DNA from: a virus
Length of the DNA: 52,363 nt
Strand: one strand, 5' to 3'
IMG/VR virus record: IMGVR_UViG_3300037069_001879
Span: 1 to 52,363 of that record
Both the position numbers and the translations under genes were made by a program. Below the pieces are notes generated by a model. That model was not told the DNA's origin. It searched no databases and saw only the letters and a program-made list of their open reading frames with translations. Positions 36,470 to 43,810 of the stretch are shown here, piece after piece (within the stretch, counting starts at the first letter, position 1; every line of letters starts with the position of its first letter).

Positions 36470-36946
36470 TTAAAATAATGAGGTTTGATAATGTGCAGGA
36501 TTGTTGTCAAAATCCTCCCAGTTAAATTCTTTGAGCTGTTTGAAATTGTGTATCTCGTCGCGTGTATGATGCAATACATTGGCAAGACCTTTATAATTTA
36601 CCTCACCGTGTTTTAGCATCTCCTCGAGCATTTTAGCCATTCGTAAAACGTCAACGTTGCGGGATTGGTTTTCTATCATATTAATGGTTATACTATCAGC
36701 AGCGGTAAGGTTTTCAAAAACAAAGCATATCGCGTGTGTTATGCCCAAATCTTTAAGCGCCCTTAAAATGTCATTGCCGGCAACCAAAAAATATTCATTA
36801 AGTATATACTCAACCAATATGGGTTTAAATTGTCCATAACGCTTAACAATACAGTTGGTTACATGCTGCTCGTGTTTGGTTCGCTTGCTATGTTTAATAA
36901 GGTCGGTATTATATCCCAGGTCCTCAACGGGTATTATTTTAATCAT
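36470..36946 (-). CDS. ParB-like nuclease-domain protein adjacent to DpdA
   Basis: ATG 36946 overlaps the DpdA stop as ATGA, so translation is coupled to it. The 158-residue protein has a ParB N-terminal-like core: KIIPVEDLGYN, then QFKPILVEYILNEYFLVAGNDILRALKDLGI, matching the fold that binds CTP and, in related proteins, cuts or reads DNA. The Gly-x-x-Arg element appears as GNDILRA. Bacterial dpd modification clusters include DpdB, a ParB/DndB-like partner needed with DpdA for base insertion. The small size and adjacency here suggest an analogous helper, but this is an inference. Confidence 0.75.
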   Translation of the reverse strand: MIKIIPVEDLGYNTDLIKHSKRTKHEQHVTNCIVKRYGQFKPILVEYILNEYFLVAGNDILRALKDLGITHAICFVFENLTAADSITINMIENQSRNVDVLRMAKMLEEMLKHGEVNYKGLANVLHHTRDEIHNFKQLKEFNWEDFDNNPAHYQTSLF

Positions 36947-37821
36947 AATGCTAAGTTTCCTTCCCAATCTATACCCCTGTACATCCAGAGGTCGGTAAAA
37001 AAATATTCAAGCTGTTTATAGTGAGTGCAGGCCCATTCCTCTTTTACCTTGATCTCCTCGGGTTTGCGGAATGAATTGTGCATAAATATAGGAATGTTGC
37101 TCCTGATAAAGTGATCCTTTACAGGCGCGCAGGATAGCATCCTACCATTATTAAAAATCTGAAAAACGCCATACCTGACAACGGTACACCAACTGGAGCT
37201 ATCTACTGAGTAAAAAGGAAAGTCATACAGCAGATCGGCGCGCGTGAACGCGAAACCATGAACCTTTACCTTGGCATCATACGCTTTTTTCAAATAGCGA
37301 TTGTAGGGCAACATTGGTTGGCTTGGCCGGATGCCCTCTAACCCTATATATCCACTATGCGAAGTATCCAGCAGCTCGTCAAATTCGCGCTCGGTATTTG
37401 AGCTGTGAAAAACAGTTATGCACTTGTCGTAAACGCCCTCCGCTGCCATGATCTCGCGCCACTCGGTTACGCGCTTTTGACCCACAACCTCCTGCAAGTC
37501 AAGCTCCACGAAGTAGTCAAAATAGTTATACCATTCTTTTACCCATTCAAGGTATTTGGCAAAATACACCTCAGGATCCTGCTGAGCTTTTTTACCTTTT
37601 TTCTCTTTCTTGCCCGTAACCGACACGCCCATTTGTTCAAAAAAACTATGGGCGCCACTATCAATGGTTATAATACCCGTGTGGCCTTTTGGTTTTAAGT
37701 TTGGCAGCTCAGCGTTTACCTTTTTGTGGTAGAAGTAAGTAAGGAACAAGTTGCTATCCAAAGGCAGCTCAATTTTATAACTGGACTTTTGCGTTTCATA
37801 CGCTGCAAAGTAAATCCTCAT
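36943..37821 (-). CDS. dpdA: DpdA-like DNA guanine transglycosylase
   Basis: A 292-residue protein with TGT/DpdA features: IDSGAHSF (53-60), VELDLQE (105-111), HGFAFTRADLL (188-198) and the signature YSVDSSSW (204-211). DpdA enzymes swap guanine in DNA for a 7-deazaguanine base made by the FolE-QueD-QueE route, which this phage also encodes at 41.0-43.8 kb. It is shorter than queuosine TGTs and lacks their zinc-site CxCxxC. Start and stop overlap the glycosyltransferase and ParB-like genes by 4 bp each. Assignment is by motif pattern, and subfamily (DpdA1, 2, 3) cannot be decided by eye. Confidence 0.85.
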   Translation of the reverse strand: MRIYFAAYETQKSSYKIELPLDSNLFLTYFYHKKVNAELPNLKPKGHTGIITIDSGAHSFFEQMGVSVTGKKEKKGKKAQQDPEVYFAKYLEWVKEWYNYFDYFVELDLQEVVGQKRVTEWREIMAAEGVYDKCITVFHSSNTEREFDELLDTSHSGYIGLEGIRPSQPMLPYNRYLKKAYDAKVKVHGFAFTRADLLYDFPFYSVDSSSWCTVVRYGVFQIFNNGRMLSCAPVKDHFIRSNIPIFMHNSFRKPEEIKVKEEWACTHYKQLEYFFTDLWMYRGIDWEGNLAL

Positions 37822-38828
37822 ATAAGCGATTTAACAGCGTCCATAATTACGTCCACATTATTCAGCACACCCGCAGGCTGCGGAGCCGCGCAATCGACAA
37901 GCTCCAGCGTGTCGTCGATCTCGGCCTCATTATCGTACAGGTTCATAATTGGAACAAACTCATTATAGCAGGCGCGATTGGGCGCCACGATCATACAGTC
38001 ATAGTACAAAGCTTCCTGCAGGGTGTAACCAAACGTCTCCTGGCGCGCTGTTGATAGATACCATTTTGCCTGATCGAGGATTTTATAATACTGCTGTTTT
38101 GAGAGATCGAAATAATAATCCACATTTTCCATGCCCGCAAACTGTTCGCATAGCTTGTCTTTTTTGCCGCAGGATGTAATTACTATTTGGTGTGCTGTTT
38201 CCATGGCGAAGCGATAAAGCACGTCCATGCCTTTTTCGTGACAAAGACGGTGTGGCCAAATAATATAAGGCGCTTTAGGTAACGAGCCTTTTTTATGGAC
38301 GCTTTCGCACCACTCAGGGCTCCAGGGCTGACCTGTGTTTTTTACTTTATGAAGCGGTTGGCGAAAATAAGAAATAACCCGCTGTCTGTGAAACTCGCTA
38401 CCTACCAATATAAGGTCGCAAGCATCGTGCCACCCTTGCTCTGAGCTGTCGGCCCATTTATCAAGGTTACGCACAAAGTCCATGTTATCAGCGCGACCTG
38501 CATGGTTAAATGCAGCGATTGACACGCGAATACCAAGCAGCTCAGCCATATATTTAACAGACTCCAGGCCAGGAAAAAATATGTCACCAAATAGGAATAT
38601 GTCGCCCGTTTCTATTTGGCCCTCCTTGAACATATAGGCTATAATACCCAGTTGCTCAGTTTTATAACGTATGGTACCTGCAATGTCTAAAAACTGCCCA
38701 TTGGTTATTTTACTGTATCCGCTGCCTGGGTTGATCGTCAAATTACAGCGAGGAGATAGAACGTCAAAAACCATTCCCGAATACCGTTCTTCCAGCGGCT
38801 CAACCGGGACAAAAATTATTTTGCTCAT
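37818..38828 (-). CDS. GT4-type glycosyltransferase
   Basis: A 336-residue protein with a GT-B fold signature: a donor-side EX7E element (E264-TFGYTLQ-E272), followed by YYDCMIVAPN, and a C-terminal Rossmann half with ITSCGKKDKLC. The N-terminal acceptor half is less conserved, as usual. The stop overlaps the DpdA start by 4 bp (ATGA), tying its expression to DNA modification. Targets could be a modified base in phage DNA or a host surface glycan, and neither is shown by sequence. Confidence 0.82.
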   Translation of the reverse strand: MSKIIFVPVEPLEERYSGMVFDVLSPRCNLTINPGSGYSKITNGQFLDIAGTIRYKTEQLGIIAYMFKEGQIETGDIFLFGDIFFPGLESVKYMAELLGIRVSIAAFNHAGRADNMDFVRNLDKWADSSEQGWHDACDLILVGSEFHRQRVISYFRQPLHKVKNTGQPWSPEWCESVHKKGSLPKAPYIIWPHRLCHEKGMDVLYRFAMETAHQIVITSCGKKDKLCEQFAGMENVDYYFDLSKQQYYKILDQAKWYLSTARQETFGYTLQEALYYDCMIVAPNRACYNEFVPIMNLYDNEAEIDDTLELVDCAAPQPAGVLNNVDVIMDAVKSLI

Positions 38829-38844
38829 TTGTTTTGTTGTTAGC

Positions 38845-39282
38845 TTATTCGCATCGGTCGCCTGTTTGTTTGTAACGAAACCAAGGGATGAATCCTTTCG
38901 GTGTCCAAAAACCCCATTGCCTAACTTTTTTAAGTGTCAGTACAAGAGTCCAAACGGGCTTTTCAATTTCTAATTTATGTTTAAACTCTGCAGGTCTGTA
39001 AAGCAATGAACCTGCTTTAAAATACTTGGCAACCTTGCGCTTTTTGCTGCCCCAAGGCTGTGGCGTGTGATCTTTGTATATATCCTCCTCTGAGTGCTCC
39101 AGGTAGCCGCCTTTTAATATGAAGCTATAAAACGCCCAAGGGTGATCGTGTAAACAATCGTCGTCGGAAAGTATTATTTTATGAATTTTAATGGAAAACC
39201 ACTTGCATTGAAAAATGTTCCACCTGATAAGATATTCCTCGTTATCGTTTCGCGTAATAATACGCTTGCTCAAAAACTTCAT
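38845..39282 (-). CDS. Cupin-fold protein
   Basis: ATG 39282 is used (145 residues). It lies 5 bp after the upstream stop, and an in-frame ATG at 39309 is the alternative. The core reads CLHDHPWAFYSFILKGGYLEH (His45, His47, Glu62 candidates), with RPAEFKHKLE (His102) as the fourth ligand, the two cupin motifs. Such proteins bind a metal ion and may act as dioxygenase, decarboxylase, isomerase or simple binding protein. Adjacent to glycosyltransferase and DpdA, a role in finishing the modified base (for example acting on its 7-carboxyl) is possible but untested. Confidence 0.7.
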   Translation of the reverse strand: MKFLSKRIITRNDNEEYLIRWNIFQCKWFSIKIHKIILSDDDCLHDHPWAFYSFILKGGYLEHSEEDIYKDHTPQPWGSKKRKVAKYFKAGSLLYRPAEFKHKLEIEKPVWTLVLTLKKVRQWGFWTPKGFIPWFRYKQTGDRCE

Positions 39283-39287
39283 TAGGG

Positions 39288-39791
39288 CTATGCTTTTAAT
39301 TTTATCCAACCATAAGAAATTAGATCGTCAATGGATAAGTCCAGGTAATCAAGGGCTACACCTTTAGATTCCAGGTATTGGTACTGCTTGACTGAAACCT
39401 TACTAAAGTCTTTTGAGCCGTCCAAAAAGGCAACCTCACATTTTACATACTTACCATTGGTTTGTAACCACTGAAATAATACAGTTGGAATATCTTTATA
39501 TTTTTTGTCGAAAGACACGACCGATAATCCTTCCCTGTAATTTAACTGCATGGTTATAAGCTCAGTATATTCCTCGTCGGTTATACTGGACGCGGAGCGC
39601 AGATTTAACCAAACCTTGCTTAATGGTACGCCGCTAAAGCCGCTTTCCCCGACTTTATATAACGCGCTGTTTTCGTACACGCCAAGCATTATTTGTTTCT
39701 TGGTTTTAGCATTGAAATTATATTCCATTTCCTGACCTATGTGGTGGCCAAAAAATTTAACCTTGTTTTCAATCGTGTTTGCGGTTTTCAT
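39288..39791 (-). CDS. Hypothetical protein (167 aa)
   Basis: A charged soluble protein with mixed composition. The C-terminal SIDDLISYGWIKLKA is helix-like. It lies between the cupin gene and the HRH-motif protein in the operon that contains the modification genes. No signal, TM segment or known family was recognised. Confidence 0.55.
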   Translation of the reverse strand: MKTANTIENKVKFFGHHIGQEMEYNFNAKTKKQIMLGVYENSALYKVGESGFSGVPLSKVWLNLRSASSITDEEYTELITMQLNYREGLSVVSFDKKYKDIPTVLFQWLQTNGKYVKCEVAFLDGSKDFSKVSVKQYQYLESKGVALDYLDLSIDDLISYGWIKLKA

Positions 39792-39794
39792 GGC

Positions 39795-40172
39795 TTATAT
39801 GGGTAGGTGGTTGAACATTTGTACTTCGGCGCCGTTTTCGCCGTCCTCTAATACTGAGCAACTTTCCAACTCAAAGTTTTTAGCGACAAGCAGCGCAATA
39901 GTTTCGCAGCTCATGGAGCCAAAATTAAGCTCGTCGGAGCTCTCTTTAAAGATTGGCAAACTGTCCTTAAGGAACTTGGTAATGTCACGCTTTAAGGTAA
40001 TAATCTCCACATCCCTATCCTCGTGTGTTACCACTTTTTTGGCCCGTATATGGAAAACGTGTCGGTGAAGCAAGCGCAGGTAACTAACTTCGGGAAACGG
40101 ACACTGGGGCCAACAATGCACCCCCGCAATTTGCAGGGATGCCATTACTACTGTTTGGTGATCTCTTGCCAT
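39795..40172 (-). CDS. HRH-motif protein, possible T-fold relative
   Basis: A 125-residue protein. The segment YLRLLHRHVFHIRAKKVV followed by EDRDVEIITLKRDITKFL recalls the strand-helix order of T-fold enzymes such as QueD (His-x-His-x-x-x-Ile then an acidic DF-like helix). The usual cysteine and histidine zinc ligands are not all present. It starts on the last base of the upstream stop (40172). A pterin- or metal-binding role is possible but unproven. Confidence 0.5.
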   Translation of the reverse strand: MARDHQTVVMASLQIAGVHCWPQCPFPEVSYLRLLHRHVFHIRAKKVVTHEDRDVEIITLKRDITKFLKDSLPIFKESSDELNFGSMSCETIALLVAKNFELESCSVLEDGENGAEVQMFNHLPI

Positions 40173-40915
40173 TACTTAGCTATTTCCTGGGCTTTAACAA
40201 TGTCCCGCACTCTCTCGGCTTTTGCAGCCTTGTCAGGGTTTTTGGTGTAATCCTTAATCACGTTACGGATGTGACTTTCAACGCTGCACTCGATTATTTC
40301 CATAATCTCTTTAATGGTTTTCTTGTTGTCGCTATGCTCTAACCATATTTTTTGGCTTTTGCTCAGCTCTGTTGGTGTTGCAGGTTTAGCAGCTTCTTTT
40401 TTAGGCTTACCTGTGATCGCCTCGGGCTGGTATAACTCGTTAAAAATCTGCTCAGTATCCACCCAATCACGGCTACCAGTATCGCTGGTTAAACGAACCT
40501 TTATTTTATCGCCCTTTGCTTCTTTAGCACACACGGCGCCGGTGGTAGCGTTGCGAAACTGACCGTCCGAAGTAACCTCATAACGAGAGTATTTTGGGAT
40601 CCTTTTCGCTTTGCTTGGCTCAGGCATTGGCGGCGTGGCCGGAACGGTTGGCGTGGTGGGCGCGGCTGCTGGTGTTCCACCGATTGCATCCTCAAACGAG
40701 GTGGATGTGTCGGTGTCGGTTTTTGGAGCCTTCGGCGCTTTCGGTGTTTTGGGCTCTTTTTTCTCCCATGTTGCAAGCGTTTCGATTTTCAGATACCTTT
40801 TACCGGCAACCTCAATTTCTGAGTTGATTGGCTCGATGCCTGGTTTAAGGGTAAATTCTTTAACCTCTGATTTTAATAACAAGCCTTCGGCGGCTGTTGG
40901 TTTTGCTGTTTTCAT
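40172..40915 (-). CDS. NUMOD4-like domain protein with Pro-rich linker
   Basis: A 247-residue protein. A small N-terminal beta domain of about 50 residues is followed by a Pro/Thr/Ala-rich linker (about 55-100). A NUMOD4-like segment follows, YSRYEVTSDGQFRNATTG, with conserved pattern S-D-G-x-F-R-N. The C-terminal 70 residues are charged helices. NUMOD domains occur in homing endonucleases and other DNA-binding proteins. No GIY-YIG or HNH catalytic motif is visible here, so DNA binding is more likely than cutting. First gene after a regulatory region at 40.96-41.02 kb. Confidence 0.65.
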   Translation of the reverse strand: MKTAKPTAAEGLLLKSEVKEFTLKPGIEPINSEIEVAGKRYLKIETLATWEKKEPKTPKAPKAPKTDTDTSTSFEDAIGGTPAAAPTTPTVPATPPMPEPSKAKRIPKYSRYEVTSDGQFRNATTGAVCAKEAKGDKIKVRLTSDTGSRDWVDTEQIFNELYQPEAITGKPKKEAAKPATPTELSKSQKIWLEHSDNKKTIKEIMEIIECSVESHIRNVIKDYTKNPDKAAKAERVRDIVKAQEIAK

Positions 40916-40963
40916 TTTTTAAATTTTTAGCGTTTAAATTGTTGCTGTTACTTAGTGAGTGTA

Positions 40964-41017
40964 AATAACGGTACAATAAACCACTTAACCAAATTTATTT
41001 TAAAATATTTTTTAAAA
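40964..41017 (-). promoter_or_regulatory. AT-rich core repeat, copy 3, with weak leftward promoter
   Basis: A core repeat at 40998-41017 precedes a perfect -33 TTTG (40993-40990 on the minus strand), exactly as in copies 1 and 4. The expected -7 box near 40964-40971 is degenerate. It would drive genes 40172-40915 and downstream, including the DpdA cluster. Confidence 0.5.
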
Positions 41018-41018
41018 T

Positions 41019-41564
41019 TTATTTTAAATGACTAAAAAACTCCTGCTTAACCGCCGGGTTATCTTTAAAGTTACCCAACAGGGCGCAGGTAACGGTTTCG
41101 CAGTTATGTTTTTTGACACCACGCATTTCCACGCAAAGGTGCCTTGCTGTGATCTGAACCGCTACGCCCTTAGGGTCAAGCTTGTCAAATAAGAAATCGG
41201 CAACCTGCGTGGTTATGCGTTCCTGGTTCTGCAATCTACGCGCGAAGTGATCTAACACCCTGGGCAGCTTGCTCAGCCCTACAATAAACTCGCCAGGGAT
41301 ATAAGCAATAGAGGCGGTTCCAAAAAAGGGCGCCATGTGGTGTTCGCATAAACTGAAAAAAGGAATATTCTTAACCACCACCATTTCGTCGTAATTCTCA
41401 CCTTCAAATACCGTCATTTCAAATTTATCAACGGTAAGAAACTCAGTAAGGAATTTTACATAACGTCTTGGTGTGTCACGCAAGCCCTCGCGTGTGCTAT
41501 CGTCGAAACAGTCAATTAGTTGTTTAACCGCCCTTTCGGCGTTCGTTTTAGTTTGCTCGGTCAT
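41019..41564 (-). CDS. folE: GTP cyclohydrolase I
   Basis: A 181-residue type I GTP cyclohydrolase. The zinc-binding residues are Cys73, His75/His76 (SLCEHH) and Cys144 (RHLCVEM), with the GTP-binding KLPRVLDHFARRLQNQER segment. It converts GTP to dihydroneopterin triphosphate, the first step of the 7-deazaguanine pathway. It ends the 45.1-41.0-kb leftward operon and overlaps the short gene upstream by one base. Confidence 0.95.
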   Translation of the reverse strand: MTEQTKTNAERAVKQLIDCFDDSTREGLRDTPRRYVKFLTEFLTVDKFEMTVFEGENYDEMVVVKNIPFFSLCEHHMAPFFGTASIAYIPGEFIVGLSKLPRVLDHFARRLQNQERITTQVADFLFDKLDPKGVAVQITARHLCVEMRGVKKHNCETVTCALLGNFKDNPAVKQEFFSHLK

Positions 41565-41761
41565 TAGTCCTTGATCGTATAGTTTTCGTTAACAAATTCA
41601 GTTACTTTTTCAAGGATTGCCTCGATTGCAGCATCATACCTATTAATAGTCAGGCATTTAGTTTCGTCGCCGCCCTTAGTAAAAAGAGCTGTGGAATTTT
41701 CGTGAACGATCTCCATTATATCCTGTCTTAGGAATGGATCGATCTCAATTTTCTGTCCCAT
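41564..41761 (-). CDS. Small hypothetical protein between queE and folE (65 aa)
   Basis: ATG 41761 is preferred (5 bp after the QueE stop); an upstream start would overlap queE. The protein is acidic and helical (DPFLRQDIMEIVHENSTALF, DAAIEAILEKVTEFVNE). It shares a base with the folE start. Function unknown. Confidence 0.65.
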   Translation of the reverse strand: MGQKIEIDPFLRQDIMEIVHENSTALFTKGGDETKCLTINRYDAAIEAILEKVTEFVNENYTIKD

Positions 41762-41765
41762 GGTG

Positions 41766-42524
41766 TTATACTCCTGTTTTTTGATTCCATACTGAGATAT
41801 GGATCCTGTGTGAATAATTATAACCAAATTCAAGGGCCAGTCCTACAATGCTCTCAGCCATTGCGTCCAGCTCGTTTCTATTGTCAGCGGCAGCCATAAG
41901 GTACACCTGTGATTGGTACATTATATCCTGTATGTAGGTTTTTTCGATCTCTAAAAGATCGGCGCGATCTTTAACCACGAATTTAAAGCAGGTTTTTGGG
42001 CCACGAAAAGAAAGAGCCTCAATTACCTCGCGTTTAACCCTTTTAAAGTAAGGCTCACCACTGTTTTGCAGCTTAGGGCTGACATTCCAAAACTTAACCA
42101 GCGAAAACAGTTTATCACTGGGCATTATAGTACCGTTTGTTTCGATCTCAACCGTTAAGCCAGGTATACCAATATCCAAGGACAAGTACTTTATAAAATC
42201 ATAAATACTATCCTGCTGCAAAAGTGGTTCACCACCCGTTATTATAAGGTGGGCGCCTTGTTGTAGGTTAGATATAAACGCCCTGCCCCCCATGTCATCC
42301 ACGAGCTGATTAAAGGTTACCGACTTACCTTTTAACCAAACCTCGATGCTGTCACAACGCCAGGTGGCGCCATTGTGTAACTGTCCATCGCGCTCAGTAC
42401 CTTTGCCGCCACACATAAGGTTACAGCCTGCAAGACGTAAAAAATAAGCTCGTTTTCCGGCTGTCTGCCCTTCGCCCTGAACGGATAAAAAATGCTCAGC
42501 GACGGCAATGGTTTCTTTGTTCAT
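41766..42524 (-). CDS. queE: 7-carboxy-7-deazaguanine synthase (radical SAM)
   Basis: A 252-residue radical SAM enzyme converting 6-carboxy-tetrahydropterin to 7-carboxy-7-deazaguanine (CDG). The FLSVQGEGQTAGKRAYFLRL opening and LIITGGEPLLQQ and ETNGT motifs are typical of QueE. The iron-sulfur ligands are C34, C38 and C57, a CX3CX18C arrangement instead of the usual CX3CX2C, with an 18-residue insertion between the second and third cysteine. The order queE-folE with queD nearby shows a clustered pathway. No queC was found in the genome, so the pathway may end at CDG. Confidence 0.93.
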   Translation of the reverse strand: MNKETIAVAEHFLSVQGEGQTAGKRAYFLRLAGCNLMCGGKGTERDGQLHNGATWRCDSIEVWLKGKSVTFNQLVDDMGGRAFISNLQQGAHLIITGGEPLLQQDSIYDFIKYLSLDIGIPGLTVEIETNGTIMPSDKLFSLVKFWNVSPKLQNSGEPYFKRVKREVIEALSFRGPKTCFKFVVKDRADLLEIEKTYIQDIMYQSQVYLMAAADNRNELDAMAESIVGLALEFGYNYSHRIHISVWNQKTGV

Positions 42525-42751
42525 TATTTGGATGTTTTTTCAAGGTTGCTAATTTCACGCGCAAGGTACCATTGAGCTTTTTTTAAATCTTCAATGGTTT
42601 TAGAGGTATCTTTTTTACCGGCACGTGATATATATTTTACAGTGTTACCCAAGTTAAAACCTAAGTTTTGATCCTCAATATAATCTATAACCTCTATCTT
42701 GCCAGAATTATAATGAGAAGGGTGGTTTACATTATTATTGTCCATATCCAC
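42524..42751 (-). CDS. DUF3310 protein
   Basis: A 75-residue protein with the family pattern NNVNHPSHYNSGKIEVIDYIEDQNL, then GNTVKYISRAGKKD and KTIEDLKKAQWYL (PF11753). The family is frequent in phages near nucleotide-metabolism genes and has been discussed as a nucleotide kinase or regulatory protein, with no firm function. It overlaps thyX by 17 bp and queE by 1 bp. An in-frame ATG at 42745 is an equally good start. Confidence 0.85.
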   Translation of the reverse strand: MDMDNNNVNHPSHYNSGKIEVIDYIEDQNLGFNLGNTVKYISRAGKKDTSKTIEDLKKAQWYLAREISNLEKTSK

Positions 42752-43382
42752 GTGCTTTTGCTATAATGGGTAAATTTTCTGTGAATATATCGCGAATAGC
42801 CTGCGCGATTAAACGCGCTTCTTTTTGCGCGTGTTCATCAAGGCGGATATCCAAAAAGTGTATCCAGCTACGTATTGAACCAGTCATAAAAATGGTAGTA
42901 CTGGAGCACATAGGTAATATCATACGGGCGCACTCTTTGGCAACACCCAAATCCAAAAGTATGTTATAAAGCTCCCGGCCTTTTTTAATGTAATCCGCTA
43001 TTTCAGCCGAAGCAGTTGCAGGTTTCAGGTCGCGGTCGCGGTAAATAAGTGGGTCAATCAAATCCGTACTGGATTGACGATTTATAACCGCTTGCTGCCT
43101 AAGCTCTATGGGCTCCATTTTTTCTACCTTGGAATAACGCTGAGAAAACTCCTGGAATGTAAAGCTACGGTGGCGCAAAAGCTGTATGCCTATCGCTTTG
43201 GAGGTTTCTATTTCGACGGTCATATAACTATGCTCGAAAGGGCTCCAATGTTTGTTTTTGATAAGGTAGTTTATCAAGTTTTCAAGGTGTTCGGTTTTGT
43301 CGCTTCGTGAGCTACTAACACGGGCGATCTCAACAATATTAACCTCTGCATCAGGGGTTAATGATTTAAGTTTTACATTCAT
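42735..43382 (-). CDS. thyX: FAD-dependent thymidylate synthase
   Basis: A 215-residue ThyX with the signature RHRSFTFQEFSQRY (70-83), close to the classical RHRxxSxNxxSxRY. It methylates dUMP to dTMP using methylene-tetrahydrofolate and FAD. Its presence beside folE and queDE shows a local nucleotide and base-synthesis cassette that would boost DNA precursor supply and modified bases. Confidence 0.95.
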   Translation of the reverse strand: MNVKLKSLTPDAEVNIVEIARVSSSRSDKTEHLENLINYLIKNKHWSPFEHSYMTVEIETSKAIGIQLLRHRSFTFQEFSQRYSKVEKMEPIELRQQAVINRQSSTDLIDPLIYRDRDLKPATASAEIADYIKKGRELYNILLDLGVAKECARMILPMCSSTTIFMTGSIRSWIHFLDIRLDEHAQKEARLIAQAIRDIFTENLPIIAKARGYGQ

Positions 43383-43384
43383 AA

Positions 43385-43810
43385 TTATTTAAAGCTTAAT
43401 ATAGTTACGGTGCTGGAAACGGTTTCTTTCAATTTGATTTGCACGACATTAAGGCCCGCTGAGCGAAGCGCGTTTAATAAGTTTTGCGCTATATTCTCGC
43501 AGCTTGTCGGGTAAGGATATACAACCATTTTTAAATCGTCGTTACATTCCTTGATGTAAGCGCGTAAGTAGTCCAGCAGCGGGTCGGTTTCGTGTATTAA
43601 CATAGCGTGATCCAACTGCTTAAATATCGGCTCAGCGATACTATCAATGTCAGAAAACAGCATGGTAATACCGCCCTGTTGGAATGCTTTTTCAAATTGA
43701 ACGGTTATGGTGGCATAGTATGTATGCCCATGCAAGTTTTTACACTTGTCGTTAATCAGCTCATTCCTGTGAGCCGCATAAAAATGGTACTTTTTTTCAA
43801 TGTTTATCAT
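43385..43810 (-). CDS. queD: 6-carboxytetrahydropterin synthase
   Basis: A 141-residue T-fold enzyme with zinc ligands His14, His27 and His29 (HFYAAH...CKNLHGHTY), nucleophile Cys23 and the DHAMLI segment, all typical of QueD. It turns dihydroneopterin triphosphate into 6-carboxy-tetrahydropterin for QueE. It lies 2 bp upstream of thyX and overlaps the PD-(D/E)XK gene by one base, within the leftward early operon. Confidence 0.92.
   Translation of the reverse strand: MINIEKKYHFYAAHRNELINDKCKNLHGHTYYATITVQFEKAFQQGGITMLFSDIDSIAEPIFKQLDHAMLIHETDPLLDYLRAYIKECNDDLKMVVYPYPTSCENIAQNLLNALRSAGLNVVQIKLKETVSSTVTILSFK

What the first reader, a model, noticed from the sequence alone, without database searches (positions are those of the whole stretch)
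36943..43810. 7-deazaguanine DNA-modification pathway that stops at QueE (no QueC)
FolE (41019-41564), QueD (43385-43810) and QueE (41766-42524) form CDG, and a DpdA-like transglycosylase is present (36943-37821). No QueC-type PP-loop protein (SGGxDS) was found, so preQ0 should not be made by the phage. The genome may carry CDG itself or a derivative in place of some guanines. dCDG and dDG have been reported in phage DNA, but the route here is open: host QueC, a decarboxylase or direct use of CDG.
Basis: partly seen in the sequence, partly recalled or inferred. Interest (0 to 1): 0.85.

Follow-up and report, generated by a model that had tools for sequence, protein, structure and literature searches.

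The report
Phage DNA-base pathway with QueC replaced
This phage makes a guanine look-alike for its DNA and, where relatives use the enzyme QueC for the last step, carries instead an unstudied QueD-like enzyme plus a sugar-transferring enzyme; the same swap recurs in many phages, which points to an undescribed, probably sugar-bearing DNA base.

Summary
But the pathway does not simply stop at QueE. Among 80 viral loci chosen only by QueE, 38 have P, 32 have QueC, none has both; the 10 with neither are cut off near the operon start. GT occurs in 21, never with QueC. On the QueE tree the P/QueC state changes at least 22 times (shuffled mean 25); on the DpdA tree only 3 (shuffled mean 23). DNA of close pairs shows [DpdA+QueC] exchanged for [P+DpdA] or [DpdA+P+GT] between similar flanks. 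P has the QueD fold and zinc histidines but lacks QueD's catalytic cysteine. Best reading: P replaces QueC at the 7-carboxy-7-deazaguanine branch point, a matched DpdA inserts its product, and GT adds a sugar. The chemistry is inferred. dCDG and dDG in phage DNA are already published (from memory), so the P-only branch may be known as DpdL; I found nothing on the P+GT branch.

The parts
43385..43810 (-). QueD (6-carboxytetrahydropterin synthase)
   Evidence: PF01242 74 bits, phrog_2389 E 2e-19; C23, H27, D67/H68, E129 kept
41766..42524 (-). QueE (CDG synthase, radical SAM); nearest named relative Cellulophaga phage phiSM/phi38:2 (41.5%)
   Evidence: phrog_2076 170 bits; C34, C38, C57 invariant
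41019..41564 (-). FolE (GTP cyclohydrolase I)
   Evidence: PF01227 206 bits
39795..40172 (-). P: QueD-fold protein that replaces QueC in these operons (phrog_17812, unknown function)
   Evidence: homologues near GT and QueE in all GT loci of named phages; AlphaFold pLDDT 94, top PDB match QueD 4ntk E 2e-5; never with QueC
37818..38828 (-). GT: GT4-type glycosyltransferase, stop overlaps dpdA start (ATGA); ETFGYTLQE (E264-E272) = EX7E motif
   Evidence: PF00534 33 bits; PDB profile hit 4pqg E 6e-7; junction and motif; never with QueC
36943..37821 (-). DpdA-like DNA transglycosylase
   Evidence: phrog_887 E 7e-29; BFVD matches to phage TGT-like proteins; D54, D108, H188, D207 invariant
36470..36967 (-). 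ParB-like partner of DpdA, overlaps the 3' end of dpdA; true start may be inside the listed ORF
   Evidence: phrog_620 E 3e-7; same dpdA-parB pair in phi38:2, Mufasa8, phiFN37 and in most QueE-selected loci

Best explanation
The locus is a QueC-replaced branch of the phage 7-deazaguanine DNA-modification pathway. FolE, QueD and QueE make 7-carboxy-7-deazaguanine (CDG) (family knowledge). Instead of QueC, the QueD-fold protein P acts on CDG and makes a different base (inferred, about 0.8; by removing the carboxyl to give 7-deazaguanine, about 0.45; other uses of the carboxyl remain open). A DpdA lineage matched to that base, with its ParB-like partner, exchanges it for guanine in phage DNA (inferred). 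In this phage and the other P+GT loci, the glycosyltransferase adds a sugar to the base, before or after insertion (inferred, about 0.6); the attachment point is unknown (C7, the carboxyl, or the 2-amino group). The result would be a glycosylated 7-deazaguanine that hides DNA from restriction. Phages exchange [DpdA+QueC], [P+DpdA] and [DpdA+P+GT] as cassettes inside an otherwise conserved operon (shown by sequence comparison).
For: P and QueC are mutually exclusive in 80 QueE-selected loci (38 vs 32, both 0; Fisher p 9e-14, rows not independent); all 10 with neither begin under 1.9 kb before QueE. No full-length QueC in 50 whole P/GT records by PF06508. P/QueC needs at least 22 changes on the QueE tree but 3 on the DpdA tree. 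L239 (QueC) and L243 (P) have flanks 93% identical with only the DpdA/QueC vs P/DpdA block replaced; L190, L187, L188 are three alleles: QueC, P, P+GT. All ten named P-bearing phages tested have QueE. P has the QueD fold, a zinc-type His triad H19/H36/H38 and invariant R37, R53 that could hold a carboxylate. GT homologues in 50,697 phage records occur in only 5 lineages, all near QueE and P, though QueE is in just 264 records. In viral contigs 70 of 80 GT loci have P, 67 DpdA, 0 QueC. GT and dpdA overlap by ATGA. Some P+GT loci add sugar-nucleotide epimerases.
Against: No biochemistry or DNA mass spectrometry. P lacks QueD's catalytic Cys and no relative has a known reaction, so decarboxylation is a guess. 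The decarboxylation in tubercidin synthesis is assigned to a UbiD-type enzyme, not a T-fold one (PMC6112128). 7-Deazaguanine has no hydroxyl, so the sugar site is unclear. DpdA may travel with P or QueC only because it is adjacent. The QueE-selected loci are the 80 best matches of one QueE clade, with near copies. One P-bearing phage (D479) has a 278-aa QueC-like protein (MSGIDS, CxxCxxC) elsewhere. The window's DpdA joins the tree on a long branch.
Confidence: 0.65

Rival explanations
1. P is the already predicted CDG decarboxylase DpdL (Cui et al. 2023, from memory), the phage DNA carries plain 7-deazaguanine (dDG), and GT modifies something else (another base, or the host surface).
For: dDG, dCDG and a predicted decarboxylase DpdL are in that paper's abstract as I recall it; its title is confirmed in reference lists. 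P-only operons are common (19 of 72 complete operons).
Against: GT overlaps dpdA and occurs in no QueC operon; in 50,697 phage records its homologues are only near QueE and P. The paper is not held, so P = DpdL is untested.
Confidence: 0.25
2. P does not remove the carboxyl but activates, binds or transfers CDG; the DNA base is dCDG or a sugar ester of it.
For: CDG is the last base with assigned enzymes; P keeps zinc-type histidines and invariant arginines near them; Hutinet 2019 already proposed CDG for QueC-less Mycobacterium phage Bipper.
Against: If DpdA simply used CDG, P would not be needed, yet P is present in all but 5 truncated ones of the 41 QueC-less complete operons.
Confidence: 0.25
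3. The host supplies QueC, so preQ0 is inserted as in CAjan.
For: Many bacteria have QueC; Hutinet 2019 discusses host participation.
Against: It does not explain strict P/QueC replacement in one operon or the matching DpdA lineages.
Confidence: 0.05
4. QueC lies in a missing part of the genome (the record is linear).
For: No terminal repeats; classed linear.
Against: No relative has P and a full-length QueC; the right end of the record falls in a tail-gene region.
Confidence: 0.02

Closest known systems
Phage preQ0 / archaeosine DNA modification (CAjan, 9g, Rosebush; Hutinet et al. 2019, PMC6884629)
   Same: FolE, QueD, QueE and a DpdA in one gene cluster; base made first, then exchanged into DNA
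   Different: No QueC or Gat-QueC; P and GT instead
Cellulophaga phage phi38:2 / phiSM operon
   Same: Closest named QueE (41.5%), same dpdA-parB pair, same operon type, Bacteroidota phage
   Different: Has QueC and QueF, no P, no GT
dCDG / dDG phages and the predicted decarboxylase DpdL (Cui et al. 2023, NAR 51:9214; paper not held, content from memory)
   Same: 7-deazaguanine bases that do not pass through preQ0
   Different: Identity of DpdL with P untested; I recall no glycosylated base there
QueD / 6-pyruvoyl-tetrahydropterin synthase family
   Same: P has this fold and the zinc-type His triad
   Different: QueD's catalytic Cys position is an invariant Leu (L32), His-Gly-His is His-Arg-His
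Tubercidin and huimycin pathways (PMC6112128, PMC7439116)
   Same: CDG used without passing through preQ0 (tubercidin); a glycosyltransferase proposed to put GlcNAc on a 7-deazapurine 2-amino group (huimycin)
   Different: Free nucleosides, UbiD decarboxylase, no DpdA

Membership tests
Phage 7-deazaguanine DNA modification systems (DpdA type) | CDG synthesis genes FolE, QueD, QueE with conserved active-site residues | tested here: met
Phage 7-deazaguanine DNA modification systems (DpdA type) | DpdA transglycosylase related to TGT | tested here: met
   phrog_887 E 7e-29, BFVD structural matches to annotated phage TGT-like proteins, invariant Asp54/108/207 and His188; but no PDB TGT hit by sequence or fold, HHalign to E. 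coli Tgt not significant
Phage 7-deazaguanine DNA modification systems (DpdA type) | 7-deazaguanine nucleoside present in virion DNA | not testable with these tools
   needs LC-MS
preQ0 branch (dPreQ0, dADG, dG+) | QueC or Gat-QueC encoded | tested here: not met
   PF06508 none in window; none full-length in 50 P/GT records
QueD (CPH4 synthase) for protein P | T-fold of the PTPS/QueD type | tested here: met
   model pLDDT 94; 4ntk E 2e-5, probability 1.0; HHalign to QueD 84%, E 7e-6
QueD (CPH4 synthase) for protein P | Catalytic Cys before the HxH zinc motif | tested here: not met
   position is Leu32 in all 78 sequences
DpdL, predicted CDG decarboxylase (Cui 2023) | Same protein family as the published DpdL | not testable with these tools
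   paper not held; no relevant mention found in the library
GT4 retaining glycosyltransferases | Glycos_transf_1 domain with EX7E motif | tested here: met
   PF00534 33 bits over cut-off 26.4; E264-E272 in the window; E272 in 115 of 116 relatives, E264 less conserved

The most novel reading that the evidence does not exclude
Phages switch between at least three alleles of a DNA-base cassette (DpdA+QueC, P+DpdA, DpdA+P+GT) in a fixed operon, and the third makes a glycosylated 7-deazaguanine: P removes the carboxyl of CDG, exposing a reactive C7 to which GT joins a sugar by a carbon-carbon bond, so that phage guanines carry C-linked sugars.
Probability: 0.15. Interest if true: 0.95.

Novelty: new variant of a known kind. 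Interest (0 to 1): 0.78.

Why it matters
Sugar-bearing phage bases are known on pyrimidines (5-hydroxymethylcytosine, 5-hydroxymethyluracil; general knowledge); a sugar on a guanine analogue would be a new class of hypermodified DNA. The repeated QueC/P swap gives a natural experiment on how DpdA chooses its base, and names two untested enzymes in sequenced named phages (Acidovorax ACP17, Pseudomonas PA5oct group, Xanthomonas X1, Chryseobacterium MA9V-3) whose DNA can be analysed directly.

Tried and rejected
Cupin 38845-39309 ('cysteine dioxygenase', phrog_4786) as the missing enzyme: common in unrelated phages and found in only three other module loci. Host QueC: does not explain the P/QueC replacement. 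Weak PF06508 hits in P records: partial and low; L181 looks like NAD synthetase by sequence. TGT in the PDB as proof for DpdA: the fold search gave only generic TIM barrels and HHalign to E. coli Tgt was not significant; the PHROG and BFVD matches carry the claim. Single-protein viral scans with the window's QueE and GT found nothing, and alignments A3 and A8 were too diverse to scan. My first reference set for P, from an HMM of stop-to-stop ORFs, was badly bounded; redone with clean seeds.

Full report
OBSERVATION. The window is one complete IMG/VR virus record of 52,363 bases with linear ends, a tailed phage (tape measure protein present) whose portal is 31-35% identical to those of Bacteroidota phages such as Croceibacter P2559Y. 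FolE, QueE, QueD and a DpdA-like protein are at the stated places on the minus strand. No QueC is found with PF06508 or by the PP-loop motif. The DpdA candidate has no Pfam hit but matches phrog_887 (queuine tRNA-ribosyltransferase, E 7e-29). It forms the dpdA-parB pair seen in phi38:2, Mufasa8 and phiFN37, and its model matches phage TGT-like proteins.

Directly upstream of dpdA, overlapping its start by ATGA, lies a GT4-type glycosyltransferase (GT). In 50,697 phage records its homologues occur in 16 records of five lineages: Synechococcus BUCT-ZZ01, Acidovorax ACP17, Xanthomonas X1, Sinorhizobium Phosso and the Pseudomonas PA5oct group. In all five GT lies within about 7 kb of QueE, although QueE occurs in only 264 records. 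An all-against-all comparison showed a second shared gene: the 125-aa protein at 39795-40172 (P) has a homologue near GT in all five. None of the five has a full-length QueC; X1 has one weak partial match.

HOW GENERAL. Scans of viral contigs with P and GT alignments gave at least 588 and 391 loci, 80 kept of each. P loci: QueE 54, FolE 54, QueD 50, DpdA 40, GT 36, QueC 0. GT loci: P 70, DpdA 67, FolE 62, QueE 56, QueC 0. A common gene order, QueD-QueE-FolE-P-GT-DpdA(-ParB), is the order of the window. Fifty whole records checked with PF06508 gave only partial hits. All ten named P-bearing phages tested have QueE.

AN UNBIASED TEST. To avoid choosing loci by P or GT, 80 loci were collected by QueE alone. 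P without QueC: 38. QueC without P: 32. Both: 0. Neither: 10, all on contigs that begin less than 1.9 kb before QueE. GT is in 21, never with QueC. In complete operons QueC lies between DpdA and QueD in 31 of 31 and GT in 17 of 17; P lies there or on the other side of DpdA.

CASSETTE EXCHANGE. On a QueE tree of 75 loci the P/QueC state needs at least 22 changes, about what shuffling gives (25). On a DpdA tree of 70 loci it needs 3 (shuffled 23). Paired loci show why: L239 (QueC) and L243 (P) share flanks at 93% DNA identity up to ParB and again from QueD onward, while the block between is [DpdA-QueC] in one and [P-DpdA] in the other. L190, L187 and L188 are three alleles, QueC, P and P+GT, with flanks 77-82% identical. 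So DpdA changes together with the last base-making enzyme. The simplest reason is that DpdA must accept that enzyme's product; physical adjacency is an alternative. Trees were built with the quick method and contain near copies and long branches, the window among them.

WHAT P IS. P is predicted with high confidence (pLDDT 94) to have the QueD/PTPS T-fold, supported by profile comparison. All 78 sequences keep H19, H36, H38 (zinc-type positions), R37, R53, E56, S88-C89-E90, E109-D110 and E112; the position of QueD's catalytic Cys is always Leu. QueD itself is usually present too, so P is not a spare QueD. Exclusivity is with QueC, which places P at CDG. T-fold enzymes have been recruited to 7-substituted 7-deazaguanines before (QueF, QueF-like; general knowledge). 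That P removes the carboxyl is inference; in tubercidin synthesis a UbiD-type enzyme is proposed for a similar step (PMC6112128).

WHAT GT DOES. GT keeps the EX7E motif of retaining GT4 enzymes in the window. Its association with P and DpdA points to a sugar on the 7-deazaguanine. Possible sites are C7 after decarboxylation, the carboxyl of CDG, or the 2-amino group, the last with a proposed precedent in huimycin (PMC7439116). Epimerase and radical SAM genes in other P+GT loci suggest further variety there, not in the window.

KNOWN AND NEW. Hutinet 2019 noted a QueC-less phage (Bipper) and suggested CDG. Cui 2023 reported dCDG and dDG and predicted a decarboxylase DpdL (from memory; paper not held; title confirmed). 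If DpdL is P, the P-only branch is known in outline. I found no report in the held library of a glycosylated 7-deazaguanine in DNA or of QueC/P cassette exchange; the library is incomplete.

VERDICT. Observation confirmed; 'stops at QueE' is not the right picture. This is a new variant of a known kind of system, with a directly testable prediction in named phages.

Noticed in passing
L066:7688-8191 and 23 further loci: A purine-type phosphoribosyltransferase lies near P or GT in 24 loci and in no QueC locus (also L007:10093-10554, L011:14333-14767); it recalls TubE of tubercidin synthesis, which joins CDG to PRPP, and may mark a nucleotide-level branch.
   Followed up: partly
L073:3828-4658, L049:5117-5980 and 31 further P-only loci: A 280-290 aa protein with a DNSAF stretch lies near P in 33 P-only loci; it may be a further, very divergent DpdA family (phrog_20335 weak, no Pfam).
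   Followed up: partly
L101:7779-9131, L040:11520-12452, L082:16506-17489: Radical SAM proteins (30 and 18 loci) and an NAD-dependent epimerase (10 loci) occur only in P+GT loci; possible further tailoring or sugar supply.
   Followed up: partly
L279 (Magnetospirillum aberrantis SpK), also L280, L281: GT, P, DpdA-like and QueD in bacterial genome contigs, near an integrase in L279: the module may also sit on integrated elements or islands.
   Followed up: partly
L277:7503-8456 (Streptomyces specialis): A P-like stretch (EGLHRWPEA...PHRHLF...VFHDDREIE) in an actinomycete genome, next to a Nudix-like ORF.
   Followed up: no
L180:1339-2172 (Vibrio phage D479): A 278-aa QueC-like protein with MSGIDS and CxxCxxC in a phage that also has P: the one possible exception to exclusivity.
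   Followed up: partly
L006:12875-13477 (Fusobacterium phage phiFN37): DpdA and ParB near an annotated queuosine precursor transporter: possible salvage route to a modified DNA base.
   Followed up: no
window 38845-39309: Cupin-like 'cysteine dioxygenase' (phrog_4786) between P and GT; similar proteins in L081, L082, L094 but common in unrelated phages.
   Followed up: partly
window 42524-43382: ThyX and a small protein of the phrog_236 'nucleotide kinase' group sit between QueD and QueE in the same operon.
   Followed up: no
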